Made by a program: the position numbers and the translations under genes. Under the pieces are notes generated by a model. The model saw only the letters and a list, made by a program, of their open reading frames with translations, was not told the origin of the DNA and ran no database searches. This document shows, piece by piece, positions 21,543 through 35,743 of a DNA stretch of 43,085 bases; within the stretch, counting starts at the first letter, position 1; each line of letters begins with the position of its first letter. Location: NCBI GenBank assembly GCA_020725465.1, contig DYEY01000009.1, forward strand, positions 1 through 43,085, given 5' to 3'. The DNA comes from Dethiobacter sp. GTDB lineage: Bacteria; Bacillota; Dethiobacteria; Dethiobacterales; Dethiobacteraceae.

Positions 21543-21570
21543 AAAACGGCGGGTTTCCCCGCCTGTTTTT
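21543..21570 (-). terminator. Terminator of the gntR-kor operon
   Basis: On the minus strand GGCGGG-GAAA-CCCGCC followed by GTTTTGG, starting at the korC stop codon. The plus strand has TGTTTTT after the same stem. Confidence 0.75.
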
Positions 21571-22111
21571 AAACGGCCTCCCGGGCCAGGCTTAAGCCCA
21601 GCTCCAGGGCCTTTATATTTATTTCTTCAGTTCCCCTGGGCGCCCGCTCCAGCACGGCCTGTTTCAGAGACTCGTCGGAAACAACTTTGGCGATGCCGTT
21701 GATGACACCCAGCGCCACTATGTTGGAGACGATTTCTTTGCCCAGTTTCTCGCGGGCCAGGCGGGTAATGGGCAAAGAGATAACTTTTTTGCCGTTTTCC
21801 GCCACCTCCCGTACAAAGGTGGAATCAACCAGCAGGATTCCGTCTTCCTTATAGTCTTTGCCGTACTTACGGTAGGAATTTTCACTCATGGCCAGCACAA
21901 AGTCGGGAACTGTCACCTTGGGATACAGGATCTCCTCGCTGTCGGTGATGACTTCCGCTTTGCTGGCACCACCCCTGGCTTCCGGCCCGTAAGCCTGGGT
22001 CTGCACCACGTAACCGCCTTCCCTGGTGGCGGCTTCGGCCAGAATAATGGCGGCCAGAATCAGCCCCTGACCTCCGCTTCCGGTTAAACGTATTTCTTTG
22101 CGACGGCTCAT
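21569..22111 (-). CDS. korC: 2-oxoacid:ferredoxin oxidoreductase gamma subunit
   Basis: 180 residues, the gamma domain that helps hold the catalytic dimer: RLTGSGGQGLILAAIILAEA, QAYGPEARGGASKAEV and the C-terminal ERAPRGTEEINIKALELG. It overlaps korB by 4 bases (ATGA). The four-gene set korD-A-B-C corresponds to a 2-oxoglutarate-type enzyme that oxidatively decarboxylates a 2-oxoacid to an acyl-CoA with reduction of ferredoxin, or the reverse. Substrate specificity cannot be read from sequence by eye. Confidence 0.93.
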   Translation of the reverse strand: MSRRKEIRLTGSGGQGLILAAIILAEAATREGGYVVQTQAYGPEARGGASKAEVITDSEEILYPKVTVPDFVLAMSENSYRKYGKDYKEDGILLVDSTFVREVAENGKKVISLPITRLAREKLGKEIVSNIVALGVINGIAKVVSDESLKQAVLERAPRGTEEINIKALELGLSLAREAV

Positions 22112-22935
22112 GACTGCCTCCCTTTTTCCCTGGCTCTTGCCACCCGGCGCTCGTATTCTTCAACAAACTCTGGCGCCGCCTGCTGGTGCAGGACACCGAT
22201 GACAATCCTGTTTTCAATTTCAGCCGGGTCCATTGACCTGGCTTTTTCAACCGTAACAGAGTTATCTTTGTACCAGTTGAGCATGGCGGTGGCATCGCCC
22301 TTTTTGTTCATCCGGCCGTAACCCACCGGACAGTATGTCATGGCTTCAACCACGGAAAAGCCCTTATTGCCCACACTGCGCTCAATTATTTTGTCCAGCA
22401 GCGGCAGGTGGTAGGTGGTGGACCTGGCGACAAAGGTAGCCCCGGCCGCCTCTGCCAGCTTCATGATGTCAAAGTTCCTTTCCGGGTTTCCGTATGGTGT
22501 GGTGGTCGCCCGGTCCCCCTGAGGAGTAAGCGGCGAAGCCTGCCCCCCCGTCATTCCATAAATATTATTATTGAAAATAATGGCATTTAAGTCTATATTC
22601 CGGCGGCAGGCGTGAATAAAGTGGTTGCCGCCGATGGCTGTGGAGTCGCCGTCCCCCATCAGCACAAAAATGGTAAGTTCCGGCCGGGCCATTTTAAGGC
22701 CGGTAGCAAAGGCCAGCGCTCTGCCATGGGTGGTATGGAGGGTCTGAAAATTCAGGTAGCCGGCCGCCCGGGAGGAACAGCCGATGCCGGAGACGACCGC
22801 AATCTTTTTGGGATCCAGGTTCAGTTTATTAATGGCACGGAGCAGTGAACCGGTTACCAGGCCGTTGCCGCAGCCCGGGCACCAGATGTGGGGCAGGCGG
22901 CTTTCCCGCAGGAAGCTGTTGTGCAGCGCGTTAAT
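22108..22935 (-). CDS. korB: 2-oxoacid:ferredoxin oxidoreductase beta subunit, ATT start
   Basis: 275 residues, thiamine-diphosphate subunit. HIWCPGCGNG near the N-terminus supplies cluster-ligand Cys residues, and MGDGDSTAIGG with FNNNIYGMTGGQ gives the TPP/Mg site. No ATG, GTG or TTG lies in frame between the upstream stop (TGA, six bases before) and the essential CPGC motif. The ATT at 22935 has AAGGAG about 10 bases upstream and sits one base after the korA stop, so it is the likely start; a CTG three codons later is the alternative. An ATG start at 22692 would delete the cluster motif. Confidence 0.9.
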   Translation of the reverse strand: MNALHNSFLRESRLPHIWCPGCGNGLVTGSLLRAINKLNLDPKKIAVVSGIGCSSRAAGYLNFQTLHTTHGRALAFATGLKMARPELTIFVLMGDGDSTAIGGNHFIHACRRNIDLNAIIFNNNIYGMTGGQASPLTPQGDRATTTPYGNPERNFDIMKLAEAAGATFVARSTTYHLPLLDKIIERSVGNKGFSVVEAMTYCPVGYGRMNKKGDATAMLNWYKDNSVTVEKARSMDPAEIENRIVIGVLHQQAAPEFVEEYERRVARAREKGRQS

Positions 22936-22936
22936 C

Positions 22937-24076
22937 TTAAATCAACTCCTTTATCCTCACCAGTATCTCCTGTGGTGTGATTAACTCGCCGTCAAAACGG
23001 TTAGCCCCCGCCACTTCGGCCCTGCCTTTGACCGCCCTCTCCACTTCGGCAATCAGCTGGCCCATGTTCATCTCCGGCACCAGGAGGGTCCGGGCGCTAC
23101 GGGTTAGCGCTGCAATTTTCTCATACGGGAAAGGCCAGATGGTGGCGGTACGGAAAAATCCCACGGGCAGACCTTCTTCCCTGGCCAGCTTTACAGCCTG
23201 GCGGGCGGAACGGGCGCTGCAGCCATAGCAGACCACCGTCAAAACAGCATCTTCTGTCCCAAACTCTTCGGTGATTATGATTTCATCCCTGTGGTTTTCC
23301 ACTTTCTGGTGCAACCTGAGCAGCTGGTTCTTTACTCTTATCGGATCGGTGGTGGGGAAACCCTGTTCATCATGAAAGAGGCCGGTGATATTAAAAAAGT
23401 GGCCGTCACCGAAAGAGGCCAGGGGTGATACTTCTCTGTCATCGGCGTAAGGCTTGTAGTCCACGCCGTCAGCCGGCCGTTCGCGGTTCACGATTTCCAG
23501 GCTTTCCGGCGCCGGGACAATTATGTTCTCCCTCATATGCCCCACTATTTCGTCGAGCAGGATGATTACCGGCTGCCTGAGTTTTTCGCTAAGGTTAAAG
23601 GCTTTGACCGTCAGATCGAAAGTTTCCCTTACCGAAGAAGGCGAGAAGGCAATAACCGGGTGGTCACCATGAGTACCCCAGCGGGCCTGCATCACATCGC
23701 CCTGGGCCGGAGCCGTGGCCACACCGGTGCTTGGGCCAAGGCGCTGGACGTTGACTATGACACAGGGAATCTCGGCCATAATGGCATAACCGATATTTTC
23801 CTGTTTCAGAGAAAAACCCGGGCCACTGGTAGCGGTGAATGCTTTCGCGCCGCCGATGGCCGCCCCGATTACTGCTGCCATGCCGCCTATTTCATCTTCC
23901 ATCTGGATAAACCTGCCGCCTGTCTCGGGAAGCCGGCGGGCAGCGATTTCAGCTATCTCGGTGGAAGGGGTTATGGGATAGCCGGCATAAAAATTGGCAC
24001 CGGCGGCTATCGCTCCCTCGGCACAGGCTTCGTTACCCTGCATTAACCTGCTCTCTGGTTTCTTTTGCAAAATCAT
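22937..24076 (-). CDS. korA: 2-oxoacid:ferredoxin oxidoreductase alpha subunit
   Basis: 379 residues. LMQGNEACAEGAIAAGANFYAGYPITPSTEIAE opens the pyrimidine-binding domain (described here in two parts of that motif), and TATSGPGFSLKQENIGYA follows. The C-terminal part has CYGCSARSA and the TIWPFP segment. The ATG at 24076 has GGAGG four bases away; an ATG at 24043 (MQGNEA) is a reasonable alternative, with less overlap with korD. Forms the catalytic unit with KorB. Confidence 0.93.
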   Translation of the reverse strand: MILQKKPESRLMQGNEACAEGAIAAGANFYAGYPITPSTEIAEIAARRLPETGGRFIQMEDEIGGMAAVIGAAIGGAKAFTATSGPGFSLKQENIGYAIMAEIPCVIVNVQRLGPSTGVATAPAQGDVMQARWGTHGDHPVIAFSPSSVRETFDLTVKAFNLSEKLRQPVIILLDEIVGHMRENIIVPAPESLEIVNRERPADGVDYKPYADDREVSPLASFGDGHFFNITGLFHDEQGFPTTDPIRVKNQLLRLHQKVENHRDEIIITEEFGTEDAVLTVVCYGCSARSARQAVKLAREEGLPVGFFRTATIWPFPYEKIAALTRSARTLLVPEMNMGQLIAEVERAVKGRAEVAGANRFDGELITPQEILVRIKELI

Positions 24077-24293
24077 CTTGCCTCCATAAATGAATCGCAA
24101 AGTCAGGACAATAAATTTCACACTTGTTGCAGCCGATGCAATTCTCCGGATTCCTGGCATAAGCCTTGCCGTCCTCGTTCATCGCCAACACTTCCTTGGG
24201 GCAAAAACCCACACAGATACCGCAACCCTTACACCACTCGTTCTTAATGGTTACTTCCACCGGTTTTTTCATTTTAGCCAAAGTTGCCACCAT
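24033..24293 (-). CDS. korD: 2-oxoacid oxidoreductase ferredoxin-type subunit
   Basis: 86 residues with two [4Fe-4S] motifs, CKGCGICVGFCP and CIGCNKCEIYCP. It is the electron-transfer subunit that passes electrons between the KorAB active site and ferredoxin. GGGAGGTG precedes the ATG. It begins 35 bases after the gntR stop, with no terminator between them, so gntR-korDABC is one operon. Confidence 0.94.
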   Translation of the reverse strand: MVATLAKMKKPVEVTIKNEWCKGCGICVGFCPKEVLAMNEDGKAYARNPENCIGCNKCEIYCPDFAIHLWRQDDFAKETREQVNAG

Positions 24294-25533: not shown

Positions 25534-25763
25534 CGTTTTCTGTGATCAAAATGGTGTCCGGGCGACTGGTGTTGCCGAAATCTGAAAGGAAAAACAGCGG
25601 CCTTCTTTGCTGTTCTGCCTGTGAAAAACGTTGCATAGTAATTAATCGAATATTATTAATATTTAAACAATTAGGCTTTATCAAAGGTTAGGGGGGTGCT
25701 GCCTAAGGAGTGGGTATTGAATCAGTGAGATTACAGGAGATTTATTTGAAAAGGAGGATAGAG

Positions 25764-27092
25764 ATGGCAAAAACATACCGCAAATACTGGGATGAAGAAC
25801 TGGAGACAGCGCCACGGGAGAAAATCAGGGCAATGCAGCTGGCTGCACTGAAAGAAATGCTGGACTTGGTTTACAACAACTCACCTTACTATAAAAAAAG
25901 TTTTGATGAGCACGGAGTGAGCCCGGCTGACTTGAAGACGTTGGAAGATTTGAAAAAATTCCCTTACATTAACAAGTATATTCTGCGCGAGCGCCAGCAA
26001 GCCGCACCTCCCTTCGGCGACCTGGTACCTGTTCCGGAGGAAGAATTGGTTTATATGTCAGCCTCAAGCGGTTCAACCGGTATACCTACCGCTTCACCGT
26101 TTACGCTGCAGGATTTTGAGGAGTGGCAGGATTATGAGGCCAGGCTGTTTTGGTCTTCGGGTATGAGGCCCTATGACCGCTATTGCCACGCTTTGCAGTT
26201 CACCCTTTTTGTGGGAGGGCCTGATGTTATCGGTGCACAAAAGGTCGGGGCTCTCTGTGTTTGGGCCGGCACCGTACCGTCGGAAAGGATGCTGGAAATT
26301 CTCAGGCAGTGGCAGATTACAGTGACCTGGACAACTCCCTCCTTCGCCTGGTACCTGGGTGAAACAGCAAAAGCACAAGGTATTGATCCCCAAAAAGACC
26401 TGTTTGTCAGGAAAATATTCGTGGCCGGAGAGCCCGGCGGGTCTATTCCCGAAACAAGGCAGAAAATTGAAGAGCTCTGGGGCGCCGATCTTTACGACTA
26501 TTACGGCCTGTCTGACATCTTCGGCGCCTGCGCCGGTATGTGTGAAGCCAAAGACGGCCTGCACTGGGCGGAAGACCATATCCTGATTGAAGTCATCAAC
26601 CCTGACACCGAAGAAGAGGTACCTGAAGGGGAGCGGGGTGAACTGGTGCTTACTTCCCTTAAAAAGCGCGGTCGCCCCCTGATAAGATTCCGGACCGGGG
26701 ACATTGTTTCCTATACCAGCGAAAAGTGCAGTTGCGGGCGCACTCACCTGCGCCTGCACGGTATCCACGGCCGGCTAGACGACATGCTGATTATCAGGGG
26801 AGTAAATGTTTTCCCCAGTGACATCGAAGTCGTAGTCCGTAAAAACCCTGATCTGAGTGGTGAATTCCGCCTGGTGATTACCGAGGAAAAGCACCTGGCC
26901 GTACTGACCGTGGAAGCGGAAAGGGCTCATGAGTACAGCGGTGATATCCGACAACTGCAGGAGAGGGTGATTACGGACTGCAACAAAATCCTCGGCATCA
27001 GGCCCAGGGTAAACATCCTTGAACCCGGTGCACTGCCAAGGGCCACCCATAAAGCAAAGCGCGTTTTTGATGAGCGCAAAAATAACCGTTAA
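25764..27092 (+). CDS. PaaK-like aryl/acyl-CoA ligase
   Basis: 442 residues, phenylacetate-CoA ligase type of the adenylate-forming superfamily. SASSGSTGIPT is the P-loop, YYGLSDIFG the A5 region, LIRFRTGDI the A7 region, CSCGRTHLRLHGIHGRLDDM the A8 hinge and IRGVNVFPSDIE the start of the C-terminal lid. It activates a carboxylic acid to its CoA thioester with ATP. The ATG at 25764 has AAGGAGG six bases upstream. It heads a rightward operon with a permease and a dehydratase-family enzyme. The acid could be aromatic or a hydroxy acid; not determined. Confidence 0.9.
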   Translation: MAKTYRKYWDEELETAPREKIRAMQLAALKEMLDLVYNNSPYYKKSFDEHGVSPADLKTLEDLKKFPYINKYILRERQQAAPPFGDLVPVPEEELVYMSASSGSTGIPTASPFTLQDFEEWQDYEARLFWSSGMRPYDRYCHALQFTLFVGGPDVIGAQKVGALCVWAGTVPSERMLEILRQWQITVTWTTPSFAWYLGETAKAQGIDPQKDLFVRKIFVAGEPGGSIPETRQKIEELWGADLYDYYGLSDIFGACAGMCEAKDGLHWAEDHILIEVINPDTEEEVPEGERGELVLTSLKKRGRPLIRFRTGDIVSYTSEKCSCGRTHLRLHGIHGRLDDMLIIRGVNVFPSDIEVVVRKNPDLSGEFRLVITEEKHLAVLTVEAERAHEYSGDIRQLQERVITDCNKILGIRPRVNILEPGALPRATHKAKRVFDERKNNR

Positions 27093-27131: not shown

Positions 27132-28493
27132 ATGGCCAGGTACGCTTATCAGGGTAAGAGGGTTTATAACACGGAGCAGCCCTATATGCTGGGCAGGCTG
27201 AAACTGCGTATACCCTTTGTCCACTATCCTTTTGAGATACCAGACGCTGTTCAGGGAGCAATTCTTTGTGTCGTTCCGATGGGGATAACCGCAGCCATGA
27301 CCGATGTCCTCGGCATTCCTTTTGAAATCGCCATTGCCATGGTTATCTTAAACAACTTCATGTACCTGCTGCACACCCACTTCGGTGACCCGGCAGTAGC
27401 CGGGTGGATCACCCCCGGTATTCCTCTGTATGTAGCTTTTCTGACAACATTTGAACCCGGCCTGGCCCGTATTCACGCCATGATTGCCCTGCAGATGACT
27501 GTAGGAGTAATCTTTCTCTTGCTGGGCGTGACAGGAACGGCGGATCGCTTTGTCAAAGCTGTACCCACCAGCATGAAAGCGGGCATCCTGCTTGGCGCCG
27601 GTATAGCATCCCTGATTGGCGAGTTCAGAGCGGGCGGGCGTGTCATGACCTTCCCGGTTTCAATTATGTTCGGTTTGTTTGTCTCTTTTTTCATGCTGTT
27701 TTCATCTTCGACACAGGAATTGCGTAAGCGTTATTCATTTTTCAGGTATGTGGCCCAGTACGGCATAGCAATACCCTTCTTTATTTCCTACGTCCTTGGC
27801 ATAGTAATCGGCGAAATCAAGAAGCCGGTTATTGCCTGGAGTCTGACCGGTATGCCCCTGCGGGACATGGTGGCCAGCCTTTCCGTTTTCAGCGTCGGCT
27901 TCCCCGCCTTCAGCTATTTTATGGCGGCGCTCCCCCTGGCTATAGCAGCCTATATCATTGCTTTCGGCGACACCCTGGTTGCCGCCAGTCTGCTTAAAGC
28001 TGCTGATGAAAAGCGCCAGGATGAGAAAATTGTCTGGGAGCCCAACCGGAACCATGTTATTACTTCCATCCGCAACTTGGTAGAGTCGTTCTTCTTCTGT
28101 TACCTGCCTCTGGCCGGGCCGCAGTGGGCAGGCGGCCAGGCCCTGGTTGTCAACCGTTACATGAACGCCACGCCGGAAGAGGAGGAAACCTACTTCGGTG
28201 GCGCCACCTCCATCTTTTGGGGCATGAGTATTGCCCTGCTGCTGGGCCCGATGGTAACCTTTTTCCGGCCGGGCCTGGCGATTGGTCTTTCACTGACATT
28301 GCTCCTGCAGGGTTACCTCTGCGGTTACCTGGCCATGAGTATGGTAGAGAATAACCTGCAAAGAGGGATCGCCACCGTGATGGGGGCGGTGATTGCCACC
28401 CAGGGCGCCGCCTGGGGTCTTGGGGTAGGTCTGGGGTTGTACCTCTTGCTTGAGCACCCCTGGATCAAAGGTGATCAGGATGTGAAAAAGTAA
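27132..28493 (+). CDS. Multispanning permease (NCS2-like)
   Basis: 453 residues with about 11-12 hydrophobic helices, for example IPDAVQGAILCVVPMGITAA, RIHAMIALQMTVGVIFLLLG and GIATVMGAVIATQGAAWGLG. The helix pattern and Gly-rich mid-protein segments suggest an APC-superfamily (NCS2-like) solute carrier; I am not certain of the family. GAGGAGG precedes the ATG. Position between a CoA ligase and a CoA-ester enzyme suggests it imports the acid that the ligase activates. Confidence 0.8.
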   Translation: MARYAYQGKRVYNTEQPYMLGRLKLRIPFVHYPFEIPDAVQGAILCVVPMGITAAMTDVLGIPFEIAIAMVILNNFMYLLHTHFGDPAVAGWITPGIPLYVAFLTTFEPGLARIHAMIALQMTVGVIFLLLGVTGTADRFVKAVPTSMKAGILLGAGIASLIGEFRAGGRVMTFPVSIMFGLFVSFFMLFSSSTQELRKRYSFFRYVAQYGIAIPFFISYVLGIVIGEIKKPVIAWSLTGMPLRDMVASLSVFSVGFPAFSYFMAALPLAIAAYIIAFGDTLVAASLLKAADEKRQDEKIVWEPNRNHVITSIRNLVESFFFCYLPLAGPQWAGGQALVVNRYMNATPEEEETYFGGATSIFWGMSIALLLGPMVTFFRPGLAIGLSLTLLLQGYLCGYLAMSMVENNLQRGIATVMGAVIATQGAAWGLGVGLGLYLLLEHPWIKGDQDVKK

Positions 28494-28540: not shown

Positions 28541-28732
28541 ATGTTGAAAAGTTCTGGTAAAGTCATACCGGATGAATTACTGTATTTTCTTGTGCTGGGC
28601 GGGGCTGTTGTTTTATCAGCCTGGCTTACAGCTGAGATGTCCAGACGTAAAGTCAGTATCGGCCTCAAAAGGTTTATCGTCTCAACAACAGGCATCCTGA
28701 CGGTTCTTTTGGTGCGGTTACTCATCAAATAG
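28541..28732 (+). CDS. Two-helix small membrane protein
   Basis: 63 residues with hydrophobic segments at about 13-30 and 42-61 separated by a basic turn (EMSRRKVSIGLKR). It lies between the permease and the dehydratase-family gene in the same direction, 17 bases before the latter. The ribosome-binding site (AGGCAGGG) is weak and distant, so its reality is less certain than its neighbours'. It could be an accessory subunit of the permease. Confidence 0.5.
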   Translation: MLKSSGKVIPDELLYFLVLGGAVVLSAWLTAEMSRRKVSIGLKRFIVSTTGILTVLLVRLLIK

Positions 28733-28749
28733 CAGAGGAGGCGGTTCAG

Positions 28750-30207
28750 GTGGTTGTCAGAACAAGGCAGGAATACCTGTCATCTTTAAAGGAAATGCGG
28801 CCAAATATCTATAAGTTTGGCGAACTGATACGGGATGTCACCACACACCCCGCTACCAGGCGCACTGTGGAAAGCCACGCGCGCGCGTTCGACGCGGCAC
28901 AGGATCCCCAGAGGGAGAAGATTTTTACCACAATTTCTTCTTTCAGCGGAGAGAAAATAATGCGCTTTACCAGCCTGATGACCACCAAAGAAGAGGTTAC
29001 AGCCAACCCGCTGATGAAGCGCCAGTGTTACCGTCAGACCGGGACATGCACCGGCGGCCTGTGTGTCGGCTGGAACGCGCTCAATACCATGTGGGCTGTA
29101 ACACATGACATGGACAAAGAATACGGGACTGATTACCAGGAGCGGCTGAAAAAATGGATTTTGCACTGCCAGGAGAACAGCCTGGTGGTGGCGGGTGCCC
29201 TTACCGACGCCAAGGGCGACCGCAGCAAACCTCCTTCCCGGCAGGCCAACCCGGACAGCTTCGTGCATATTGTGGAGCGCCGTCCCGGCGGTATCGTTGT
29301 CAGAGGAGCCAAACTGATGATTTGCGGCGCTGCCGCCAGCAACGAGATTTTCGTTCTCCCCGGCAGCGGGTACCGCGAACCGGACAAAGACTTTGCCGTC
29401 GCTTTTGTTGTACCCAGAGATATTGAAGGGCTGACCCTGGTGGAATGCCGCCGTCCCAGTGACAGCCGCGATCTGGAGGAAGGGTTCGACTCTCCCCTGG
29501 AGACAGGCATCACCCAGTCTTACCTGCTCTTTGACAACGTATTTGTCCCCAATGAAAGGGTATTTATGGCAGGCGAATTCAGGCACACCGGCAATATTAT
29601 CAGATATTTCACAGCCAACTACCGCGCCTGTATCGGCGCCTGCGTCACCGGGCAGGGGGATATTATGATCGGGGCGGCGGTCCTGATGGCCAGGGCCAAC
29701 GGTCTGTCGGCAAAACTGTTCCGTGACAAGATTATCCAGATGTCCGTCAATAACGAGACCACCTTCGGTGTGGGTTTGGGCGCCATTGCCATGGGCTACC
29801 GTCACCCCTCCGGTGTCTGGTTTGCCGATGATTTGCTGGCCCATGCCAACAAAATCCATGTGGCCACTCTGCCTTATGAAGTCAAAAGGTTGCTCCAGGA
29901 AATTGGCGGCGGAATTGTGGAAACGGGTTGCTTCCCATCTTACAAAGACTTTAACCATGAAGATTACGGCTCGTTCGTCCAGGCCTGCATCAAGGCCGGC
30001 GAGGTATCGGCTGAAACCAGGGCCAGGGCTGCACGGCTGGCGGAGTGGCTGACCATCGGCGGAGGTGTGCCCGGCTGTATGCATGGAGGAGGCTCTCCTG
30101 ATGGCGCCCGCCTGGTGGTCAGGGCCAATACATCAATGGACCTTTATGCCAAAATGGCGGCAGACCTGGCAGGAATCACTGAGGAGGTAAAGGAGCCGGA
30201 GGCATAA
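28750..30207 (+). CDS. 4-Hydroxybutyryl-CoA dehydratase-family flavoprotein with altered cluster ligands
   Basis: 485 residues, full length for the HpaB/AbfD family (acyl-CoA dehydrogenase fold). Family segments include AGALTDAKGDRSKPPSRQ and VPNERVFMAGE, and the C-terminal MHGGGSPDGARL. In 4-hydroxybutyryl-CoA dehydratase the [4Fe-4S] cluster is held by C99, C103, H292 and C299. Here hand alignment gives C105 and C298 for C103 and C299, C100 shifted by one residue from C99, and Y291 in place of the histidine, with an extra C294. It may act on another CoA ester or bind a different cluster. GTG start with GAGGAGG eight bases upstream. Confidence 0.85.
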   Translation: MVVRTRQEYLSSLKEMRPNIYKFGELIRDVTTHPATRRTVESHARAFDAAQDPQREKIFTTISSFSGEKIMRFTSLMTTKEEVTANPLMKRQCYRQTGTCTGGLCVGWNALNTMWAVTHDMDKEYGTDYQERLKKWILHCQENSLVVAGALTDAKGDRSKPPSRQANPDSFVHIVERRPGGIVVRGAKLMICGAAASNEIFVLPGSGYREPDKDFAVAFVVPRDIEGLTLVECRRPSDSRDLEEGFDSPLETGITQSYLLFDNVFVPNERVFMAGEFRHTGNIIRYFTANYRACIGACVTGQGDIMIGAAVLMARANGLSAKLFRDKIIQMSVNNETTFGVGLGAIAMGYRHPSGVWFADDLLAHANKIHVATLPYEVKRLLQEIGGGIVETGCFPSYKDFNHEDYGSFVQACIKAGEVSAETRARAARLAEWLTIGGGVPGCMHGGGSPDGARLVVRANTSMDLYAKMAADLAGITEEVKEPEA

Positions 30208-34583: not shown

Positions 34584-35033
34584 TTAGTGTTCGTTAAGCT
34601 TTTGCCTGACGGACTTTCGTTTTTGTTGCTCCGGTTCTTTTTCCCCCTCATCAGGTTTTACCGGCAGGCGCCTGCCCGTATTTTTTTTGGGGAAATGTAC
34701 CGTCAACAAGCCATTTTTGATATTAGCCCGGACTTTTTCCCGGTCTACTCCGGGGGGAATGGAAAGCATGCGTACGTACCTGTTTTGCGGGGGACGTTCC
34801 CGGTAAATAAATTTCAGCTCACCTGCTGTTTGCATTTCCGGCTGTCCGTCCACAAAAATACTGCCGTCACCCAGTTCTATGTTTACCCTGCCAGGCTCCA
34901 CTCCGGGAACTTCAAATATGTATATTATTTCTTCATCTGACTCCACAACGTCTACCCGGGGAACCAGCTGCATCCCCTCCGGAGCGCAGTATAGCGGTAC
35001 TCCCGGGGCAAAGGACTTTACCTGCTGATACAT
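34584..35033 (-). CDS. Hsp20/alpha-crystallin small heat-shock protein
   Basis: 149 residues. Alpha-crystallin domain (about 24-125) with VDVVESDEEIIYIFEVPGVE, a central strand set and the conserved NGLLTVHFPK end; a charged, lysine-rich tail follows. The N-terminal arm is short. It acts as an ATP-independent holdase. AGAGGTG lies before the ATG. It lies 50 bases after the second Hsp20-type gene, same direction. Confidence 0.9.
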   Translation of the reverse strand: MYQQVKSFAPGVPLYCAPEGMQLVPRVDVVESDEEIIYIFEVPGVEPGRVNIELGDGSIFVDGQPEMQTAGELKFIYRERPPQNRYVRMLSIPPGVDREKVRANIKNGLLTVHFPKKNTGRRLPVKPDEGEKEPEQQKRKSVRQKLNEH

Positions 35034-35083
35034 AATCTCACCTCTTTAATCTGAATTGGGTGAAAGCGGGGGATTTTTTTGTG

Positions 35084-35743
35084 TTAGCCAGCCGGATTGA
35101 CTTTTATTCTCCGCCTGGCGGCAAAATCAGACTTGGGCAGGCGGCACTCCAGGGTGCCGTTGGTGTAGCTGACATCGAGATACTCAGACTTTACGCTGGT
35201 TGGCAGAGCAACCGTCCTGTGGATGCTGCTGCTCATGCCGCTGACCTGGGCAAGGGCTGAAATGCTGATGGAATCGTCGGTAACAAACAAATAGATATTG
35301 TTAGGATCAACGTTAGGCAATTCGGCAGTTACTATCACATCATTGTTGGTTTCTGCCAGTTCCACCCTTGGCTCAGCCAGGCCGGCGCTTGCCTTGATGC
35401 CGGTAGTTATTCCCCCCCACATTTGGGGCTGCGCCTGGGCACCTACCTGAGTTAAATACCCTGTTACCATAGGGTTGGTTGCCTGCCAGCCCAGGTTGGG
35501 GTTAAAGCCAAAGCTGATGGCGCTTTGTGGGACAAAACCGCTCTGAATATTGCTGAGCGGAGCATACATGCTGACAGGCAGGTTGGTAGCCCAGGGCGAG
35601 AACGCCGCTGCGCCGGTCTGGACCGGCACGGTCATGCCCTGAAGTTGCTGAATGGGCACAAACGCCTGGGCGGTGAATGGCTGCTGGGGCACAAAGCCGC
35701 TGCTTTGCCAGGTTTGCCAGGGATTTACTGTGGTTGTATACAT
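35084..35743 (-). CDS. Hsp20-fold protein with Gln/Pro/Gly-rich N-terminal arm (coat-protein-like)
   Basis: 219 residues. The first 115 or so are low-complexity, rich in Q, P, A, G and aromatic residues and free of charge (for example QSSGFVPQQPFTAQAF). An alpha-crystallin domain follows (about 125-219: EPRVELAETNNDVIVTAELP ... NGTLECRLPKSDFA). The layout resembles spore-coat or inner-coat Hsp20 proteins of Firmicutes, but that is inference from composition and from the spore-forming host. Start preceded by GGAGG. Confidence 0.85.
   Translation of the reverse strand: MYTTTVNPWQTWQSSGFVPQQPFTAQAFVPIQQLQGMTVPVQTGAAAFSPWATNLPVSMYAPLSNIQSGFVPQSAISFGFNPNLGWQATNPMVTGYLTQVGAQAQPQMWGGITTGIKASAGLAEPRVELAETNNDVIVTAELPNVDPNNIYLFVTDDSISISALAQVSGMSSSIHRTVALPTSVKSEYLDVSYTNGTLECRLPKSDFAARRRIKVNPAG

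What the first reader, a model, noticed from the sequence alone, without database searches (positions are those of the whole stretch)
28750..30207. 4-Hydroxybutyryl-CoA dehydratase relative with rearranged iron-sulfur ligands
In the reference enzyme the cluster uses C99, C103, H292 and C299. By hand alignment this protein has C100 one place off, C105, Y291 instead of His, C298, and an additional C294. The catalytically important His is gone but a Cys set remains, so the cluster may be all-Cys or Tyr-ligated, with different chemistry.
Basis: partly seen in the sequence, partly recalled or inferred. Interest (0 to 1): 0.68.

Follow-up and report, generated by a model that had tools for sequence, protein, structure and literature searches.

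The report
Altered sister of 4-hydroxybutyryl-CoA dehydratase
This gene encodes one member of an untested family of anaerobic enzymes that looks almost identical in shape to a well-known radical dehydratase and keeps three of the four residues holding its iron-sulfur cluster, but has swapped nearly all the catalytic residues around it, so it probably performs a different reaction on a different CoA-bound acid.

Summary
The hand alignment is right. The 485-aa protein (28750-30207, +) has the 4-hydroxybutyryl-CoA dehydratase (AbfD) fold: predicted model Z 52, rmsd 1.3 Å over 473 residues. C100, C105 and C298 sit at AbfD's C99, C103 and C299, with one residue inserted between the first two; Tyr291 replaces His292.

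The swap is not a quirk of one sequence. 23 relatives (50-78% identical; Firmicutes-type genomes, Bacteroidota, Chloroflexota, Thermoplasmata) form one fully supported clade. All 23 keep the three Cys. Position 291 is Tyr in 21, His in 1, Glu in 1. C294 is Cys in only 14, so an all-Cys cluster using C294 is unlikely. E257, Y296, K300, H188, T190 and E455 are replaced or deleted throughout.

Eleven of 24 surveyed loci place the gene with an acyl-CoA dehydrogenase, nearly always with ETF. CoA ligases, CoA transferases, and in two loci betaine-type transporters, also occur. Best reading: a flavin/[4Fe-4S] acyl-CoA enzyme with a three-Cys, site-differentiated cluster, acting on something other than 4-hydroxybutyryl-CoA. 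My preferred but unproven guess (about 0.3) is elimination of an amine from C4. Cluster content, fourth ligand and substrate are untested. A new variant of a known kind.

The parts
28750..30207 (+). HpaB-fold protein, 485 aa, called HpaB* here: clade with altered active site
   Evidence: Pfam HpaB_N 278 bits + HpaB 127 bits; 1u8v E 5.6e-93, 6vjr E 1.9e-95; AF2 model pLDDT 92.4, Z 52.4 to 1u8v
28734..28741 (+). Shine-Dalgarno AGAGGAGG, 8 nt before the GTG start
   Evidence: sequence
29047..29049 (+). C100, equivalent of cluster ligand C99 of AbfD
   Evidence: invariant in 23/23 clade and 21/21 canonical sequences
29062..29064 (+). C105, equivalent of ligand C103; spacing CX4C instead of CX3C
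   Evidence: invariant in 23/23 and 21/21; one-residue insertion
29620..29622 (+). Y291 at the position of ligand/catalytic H292
   Evidence: Tyr 21/23, His 1 (L066), Glu 1 (L015); canonical His 20/21
29629..29631 (+).
   Evidence: Cys 14/23, Ala 6, Tyr 1, Pro 1, Thr 1
29641..29643 (+). C298, equivalent of ligand C299
   Evidence: invariant in 23/23 and 21/21
29929..29931 (+). C394 in an ETGC insertion found only in this clade
   Evidence: 23/23 in clade, gap in canonical
30076..30078 (+). C443 (VPG-CMHGGG) next to the deletion that removes E455 of AbfD
   Evidence: Cys 22/23; canonical Ser; E455 deleted 23/23. Model confidence is lowest here, mean pLDDT 62 for 441-450
25710..27092 (+). PaaK-type CoA ligase, likely same unit (true start probably near 25764)
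   Evidence: PaaK 313 bits below its cut-off of 646; PDB 4r1l and 2-hydroxyisobutyryl-CoA synthetase 6hdw; also beside HpaB* in L041, L051, L052, L059
27132..28493 (+). PurT-like permease, likely same unit
   Evidence: 7tak E 1.2e-93; also beside HpaB* in L041, L044, L052, L059, L078, L081
24329..25390 (-). GntR-type regulator, divergent from the unit
   Evidence: Pfam GntR
21569..24160 (-). 2-oxoacid:ferredoxin oxidoreductase genes; link to HpaB* uncertain here
   Evidence: alpha subunit PRK08659; same gene set directly before HpaB* in L045 and L048
30328..31740 (-). amidase downstream, convergent; a 64% homologue lies downstream of HpaB* in L059
   Evidence: Pfam Amidase

Best explanation
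The protein belongs to an uncharacterised clade derived from the 4-hydroxybutyryl-CoA dehydratase line. SHOWN: same fold, three cluster-ligand Cys kept in all members, His ligand replaced by Tyr (rarely His or Glu), most other AbfD catalytic positions replaced or deleted, and repeated linkage to CoA-activation and beta-oxidation genes. INFERRED: it holds FAD and a [4Fe-4S] cluster bound by C100, C105 and C298, whose fourth iron is not firmly held by His and may be open to substrate, solvent or Tyr291. INFERRED: it acts on an acyl-CoA as AbfD does. Deprotonation and one-electron transfer to the flavin make an enoxyl/ketyl radical that loses or shifts a group at C3/C4; the product passes to an acyl-CoA dehydrogenase/ETF and on to acetyl-CoA. 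SPECULATIVE (about 0.3): the leaving group is an amine at C4 (trialkylammonium as in gamma-butyrobetainyl-CoA, or a related nitrogen group), which needs no acid to help it leave and so explains the loss of the acid/base residues that handle the C4 hydroxyl in AbfD. Fourth ligand, my odds: open/substrate/solvent 0.4, Tyr291 0.3, C443 or C394 0.2, other 0.1.
For: Fold: Z 52.4, rmsd 1.3 Å over 473 residues to 1u8v; Z 53.5 to 6vjr; HpaB monooxygenases only 38-40. Three Cys invariant in 44 aligned proteins, absent from the aligned HpaB monooxygenases 2yyg and 9lft. One clade, support 100, stem 0.65, with the motif columns left out of the tree. 32 clade-switch positions, including E257Q, H292Y, Y296I, K300V, C347A, E455 deleted, S456C; H188M/Q and T190C/A. 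Neighbours: acyl-CoA dehydrogenase in 11 of 24 surveyed loci, with EtfB-EtfA in 10 of them, in four phyla and several gene orders. G308 cluster: SDR, CoA transferase, BCCT transporter, FeS protein, thiolase, acyl-CoA dehydrogenase, EtfB, EtfA, ETF-QO-like protein, CoaD, HpaB*. The only BCCT gene of the 5-Mb genome G111 starts about 0.85 kb after an HpaB* gene. Biological precedent: BbuA removes trimethylamine from C4 of gamma-butyrobetainyl-CoA, and its authors liken this to 4HBD (PMC8364193). Precedent for a three-Cys cluster with an open iron that binds an acyl-CoA: 2-hydroxyacyl-CoA dehydratases (PMC11574389).
Against: No cofactor, activity or substrate has been measured. The loop with C443 is the least certain part of the model (mean pLDDT 62). 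L066 keeps a His at 291, so loss of His is not absolute. BCCT lies beside HpaB* in only 2 loci, MTTB in 1 (and that genome has 20 MTTB copies), and the window's own genome has no BCCT; the window's permease is PurT-like and its ligase PaaK-like, which point to no particular substrate. The window locus itself lacks adjacent acyl-CoA dehydrogenase/ETF genes.
Confidence: 0.6

Rival explanations
1. A non-eliminating acyl-CoA enzyme: same fold and three-Cys cluster, but it isomerises a double bond or rearranges a branched or aromatic acyl-CoA with no C4 leaving group.
For: Polar catalytic residues replaced by Ile, Val, Gln, Cys; new conserved aromatics Y94, Y208, Y258, W433; PaaK-like ligase resembling phenylacetate and 2-hydroxyisobutyrate CoA ligases. 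AbfD itself also isomerises vinylacetyl-CoA (own knowledge).
Against: No neighbour specific for aromatic or branched acids was found; BCCT/MTTB neighbours in three loci suggest amines.
Confidence: 0.3
2. Still a 4-hydroxybutyryl-CoA dehydratase, with an altered ligand set.
For: Whole-length similarity and fold; beta-oxidation type neighbours would suit crotonyl-CoA.
Against: H292, E257, Y296, K300, T190 and E455 all changed across the clade; the own genome already has two canonical paralogues with CFQRC/His/Cys (L002, L003).
Confidence: 0.1
3. One reading: all-Cys cluster with C100, C105, C294 and C298.
For: C294 is one helical turn before C298 on the same helix 277-316, so it could be near.
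Against: C294 is missing in 9 of 23 members without a compensating change.
Confidence: 0.05
4. A new all-Cys cluster using the clade-specific C443 or C394 as fourth ligand.
For: C394 23/23 and C443 22/23, both absent from canonical enzymes; C443 lies beside the deleted E455.
Against: Distances not measured; L012 has Thr at 443; C443 loop poorly predicted.
Confidence: 0.15
5. A cluster-free flavin monooxygenase of the HpaB type, mis-read as a dehydratase relative.
For: Pfam and NCBIfam names are HpaB.
Against: NCBIfam HpaB scores 137 against a cut-off of 480; fold and sequence far closer to AbfD; ligand Cys invariant here and absent in HpaB; ETF and ferredoxin-oxidoreductase neighbours fit anaerobic metabolism.
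Confidence: 0.03

Closest known systems
[quoted passage not shown]
   Same: Full-length fold (Z 52.4, rmsd 1.3 Å), three of four cluster ligands, R91/R90, H445/H458 and GSP loop
   Different: CX4C not CX3C; His292 to Tyr; E257, Y296, K300, H188, T190 replaced; E455 deleted; two extra clade Cys
Archaeal 4HBD, Nitrosopumilus maritimus (PDB 6vjr)
   Same: Fold (Z 53.5), three Cys
   Different: 6vjr keeps CFQRC and His; it groups with the canonical clade
HpaB / phenol monooxygenases (2yyg, 9lft, 6qyi)
   Same: Pfam families HpaB_N and HpaB, overall fold (Z 36-40)
   Different: No cluster Cys in the two aligned (2yyg, 9lft), about 20% identity, O2-dependent chemistry
BbuA, gamma-butyrobetainyl-CoA TMA-lyase (PMC8364193)
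   Same: Proposed analogy only: flavin-dependent C4 elimination from an acyl-CoA; gene cluster with BCCT-type transporter and CoA transferase
   Different: Acyl-CoA dehydrogenase family, about 10% identity to 4HBD by its authors; no AbfD-type cluster expected
2-Hydroxyacyl-CoA dehydratases (review PMC11574389)
   Same: Works-like precedent: three-Cys [4Fe-4S] with an open iron, ketyl radical chemistry on CoA esters
   Different: Unrelated fold, needs a separate activase component

Membership tests
4-hydroxybutyryl-CoA dehydratase (AbfD type) | HpaB/acyl-CoA dehydrogenase-like fold over the full length | tested here: met
   Z 52.4, 473 residues, rmsd 1.3 Å
4-hydroxybutyryl-CoA dehydratase (AbfD type) | Cluster ligands Cys99, Cys103, Cys299 | tested here: met
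   C100, C105, C298 invariant in 23/23, but with one residue inserted between the first two
4-hydroxybutyryl-CoA dehydratase (AbfD type) | His292 as fourth ligand | tested here: not met
   Tyr291; His in only 1 of 23 clade members
4-hydroxybutyryl-CoA dehydratase (AbfD type) | Catalytic residues E257, Y296, K300, E455 (roles from own knowledge of the AbfD literature) | tested here: not met
   Q256, I295, V299, deleted
4-hydroxybutyryl-CoA dehydratase (AbfD type) | Groups with AbfD and 6vjr in a tree | tested here: not met
   Separate clade, support 100, stem 0.65; AbfD and 6vjr lie on the other side
4-hydroxybutyryl-CoA dehydratase (AbfD type) | Dehydration of 4-hydroxybutyryl-CoA; FAD and [4Fe-4S] content | not testable with these tools
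   needs purified protein
HpaB 4-hydroxyphenylacetate 3-monooxygenase | NCBIfam equivalog score above cut-off | tested here: not met
   TIGR02309 137 bits against 480.2; TIGR02310 89.5 against 885.2
HpaB 4-hydroxyphenylacetate 3-monooxygenase | No cluster Cys at the AbfD ligand positions | tested here: not met
   this protein has them; 2yyg and 9lft do not
BbuA-type C4-amine lyase (works-like comparison) | Acyl-CoA dehydrogenase family membership | tested here: not met
   best matches are 4HBDs; acyl-CoA dehydrogenases Z 24 at most
BbuA-type C4-amine lyase (works-like comparison) | Gene cluster with betaine transporter and CoA transferase | tested here: inconclusive
   true for G308; BCCT alone at G111; absent from the window's genome

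The most novel reading that the evidence does not exclude
A second radical lyase family on the 4-hydroxybutyryl-CoA dehydratase scaffold: FAD plus a three-Cys, site-differentiated [4Fe-4S] cluster without the His ligand, which cleaves an unactivated C4-N bond (betaine-type or amino/guanidino acyl-CoA) in anaerobic bacteria and archaea.
Probability: 0.25. Interest if true: 0.78.

Novelty: new variant of a known kind. Interest (0 to 1): 0.55.

Why it matters
AbfD is the textbook case of a flavin and an iron-sulfur cluster together making a radical from an acyl-CoA, and the role of its odd His ligand invites testing. Here is a natural family in which that His and nearly all acid/base residues have been exchanged while the cluster Cys stay, so the part played by each can be tested by comparison. 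It is also one of the genes behind the blanket name '4-hydroxyphenylacetate 3-hydroxylase family' in anaerobes, sits in catabolic clusters of bacteria and archaea, and could expose an unknown anaerobic degradation step.

Tried and rejected
All-Cys cluster through C294: rejected on conservation. Cluster-free monooxygenase: rejected. Sequencing or frame artefact: rejected, since intact relatives at 50-78% identity exist in many genomes. MTTB linkage: one adjacent case, but that genome has 20 MTTB genes, so not significant alone. The small 63-aa ORF at 28541-28732 has no homologue at the other loci. Papers: none of the searches turned up work on this clade; the AbfD mutant study PMC4292473 is not held, so roles of AbfD residues rest on my own knowledge. 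One scan of genome contigs gave only 6 relatives.

Full report
OBSERVATION. The ORF at 28750-30207 (+) encodes 485 residues from a GTG start with a good ribosome site. It matches Pfam HpaB_N and HpaB over its length, and among solved structures it is closest to the two 4-hydroxybutyryl-CoA dehydratases: 6vjr (E 1.9e-95) and 1u8v, AbfD (E 5.6e-93); the HpaB monooxygenases come at E 6e-34 or worse. Numbering AbfD from its PDB chain reproduces the ligands C99, C103, H292 and C299. Aligned to it, the window protein has C100, C105, Y291 and C298, plus C294 at S295. The only correction is that C100 is the same ligand as C99, and one residue has been inserted after it (TGTCTGGLC against TASCFQRC).

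A CLADE, NOT A SINGLE ODDITY. Searches of whole genomes and contigs gave 22 further full-length relatives at 50-78% identity, from many families of the same phylum and from Bacteroidota, Chloroflexota and Thermoplasmatota (a fragment also from Myxococcota). In an alignment with AbfD, 6vjr and 19 other relatives from the collected genomes, the three Cys are invariant in all 44. The position of H292 is Tyr in 21 of 23 clade members, His in L066 and Glu in L015. C294 is Cys in 14 of 23 only. A tree built without the motif columns puts the 23 on one side of a branch with support 100 and length 0.65, with AbfD and 6vjr on the other side. Thirty-two positions are fixed differently in the two groups. 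Among those are E257 to Q, H292 to Y, Y296 to I, K300 to V, V303 to Q, C347 to A, S456 to C443, A460 to G and deletion of E455; H188 (to M or Q) and T190 (to C or A) are also lost. C394, in an inserted GC pair, is new and invariant in the clade. The window's own genome also carries two canonical copies with CFQRC and His (L002, L003), so the variant is an extra, specialised paralogue.

STRUCTURE. An AlphaFold2 model from the 42-sequence alignment has mean pLDDT 92.4 and pTM 0.90. It superposes on 1u8v with Z 52.4 and rmsd 1.3 Å over 473 residues, and on 6vjr with Z 53.5; HpaB monooxygenases reach Z 38-40 and acyl-CoA dehydrogenases about 24. C100 and C105 lie in the loop before the helix starting at 106, and Y291, C294 and C298 lie on the helix 277-316, in blocks with pLDDT about 89-91. 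The loop holding C443 (residues 441-450) is the weakest part of the model (mean 62).

SURROUNDINGS. In the window the gene follows a PaaK-type CoA ligase (25710-27092) and a PurT-like permease (27132-28493) on the same strand. The nearest syntenic locus, L059 in the same family, reads ligase, permease, acyl-CoA dehydrogenase, EtfB, EtfA, sigma-54 type regulator, HpaB*, then further downstream an amidase 64% identical to the window's. Among 24 loci with useful flanks, 11 have the acyl-CoA dehydrogenase, 10 of them with EtfB and EtfA, in Firmicutes-type genomes, Bacteroidota, Chloroflexota and Thermoplasmatota and in several gene orders. The ways of making the CoA ester differ: PaaK-like or other AMP ligases, CoA transferases, or 2-oxoacid:ferredoxin oxidoreductase. 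Further beta-oxidation genes appear: enoyl-CoA hydratase, SDR, thiolase. The enzyme therefore very probably works on a CoA thioester. Transporters give a hint of substrate. The only BCCT (betaine/carnitine/choline) gene of G111 lies just after an HpaB* gene, and one of two in G308 lies in the same gene run as HpaB*. That G308 run is SDR, CoA transferase, BCCT, FeS protein, thiolase, acyl-CoA dehydrogenase, EtfB, EtfA, ETF-QO-like protein, CoaD, HpaB*. L062 has an MttB-family methyltransferase and a corrinoid protein next to acyl-CoA dehydrogenase, ETF and HpaB*, though that genome has 20 MttB-type genes. The window's genome has no BCCT gene.

MECHANISM. Shown: fold, three conserved ligand Cys, exchange of the rest of the site, linkage to acyl-CoA metabolism. 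Inferred: FAD, and a [4Fe-4S] cluster held by three Cys with a fourth iron that is open, bound by Tyr291, or bound by a clade-specific Cys. Clusters with three Cys and an open iron that engages a CoA ester are known in 2-hydroxyacyl-CoA dehydratases (PMC11574389). Speculative: the substrate carries an amine rather than a hydroxyl at C4. The residues lost are those thought to handle the hydroxyl leaving group in AbfD (own knowledge; the mutant study is not held), and two positively charged or His positions (K300, H188) are replaced by neutral residues. BbuA provides the biological precedent: it removes trimethylamine from C4 of gamma-butyrobetainyl-CoA, its authors compare this with 4HBD, and they note that trimethylammonium is a good leaving group (PMC8364193). 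I put the amine version at about 0.3, and an isomerase or rearrangement on a branched or aromatic acyl-CoA about equally likely.

VERDICT. Observation confirmed. By the defining features tested it is not a member of the 4HBD family, but it very likely works like one. New variant of a known kind.

Noticed in passing
L079:8456-17357 (G000:C46, own genome): A canonical AbfD-type paralogue with CFQRC/His/Cys sits near an octopine-dehydrogenase-type gene, two MttB-family methyltransferases, a PanB-like (ketopantoate hydroxymethyltransferase) gene and branched-chain-type ABC permeases; this looks like an amine or opine catabolic cluster.
   Followed up: partly
L025:1501-2946: A second, apparently separate lineage also has CX4C (CIGARC) but with Gln in place of the ligand His and with E455 kept; a distinct ligand variant.
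   Followed up: partly
L060:7634-9076: Directly before an HpaB* gene in G471 lies a very divergent relative with CNYRC, His kept and an extra residue before the third Cys.
   Followed up: no
L066:1498-2928: A member of the variant clade with His instead of Tyr at position 291 but all other clade features; a natural test of the ligand question.
   Followed up: no
L046:10576-10941 and L044:15643-16155: coaD-like genes (pantetheine-phosphate adenylyltransferase family) lie beside HpaB* in two genomes, and a PanB-like gene in L042; CoA biosynthesis genes near this pathway are unexplained.
   Followed up: no
L042:2490-3749: A 420-aa protein without any Pfam match in a cluster with both a variant and a canonical HpaB-type gene, nitrilase, oxoacid oxidoreductase, thiolase and PanB-like genes.
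   Followed up: no
window 28541-28732 +: A possible 63-aa two-helix membrane protein between permease and HpaB*; no homologue found at related loci.
   Followed up: yes
L004 (G000:C61:49989-51413): A fourth, divergent HpaB-type paralogue in the own genome with CIQRC and His; one in-frame TGA is reported within the matched stretch.
   Followed up: no
window 34584-35743 -: Two adjacent Hsp20-type genes, one with a long low-complexity N-terminal part.
   Followed up: no
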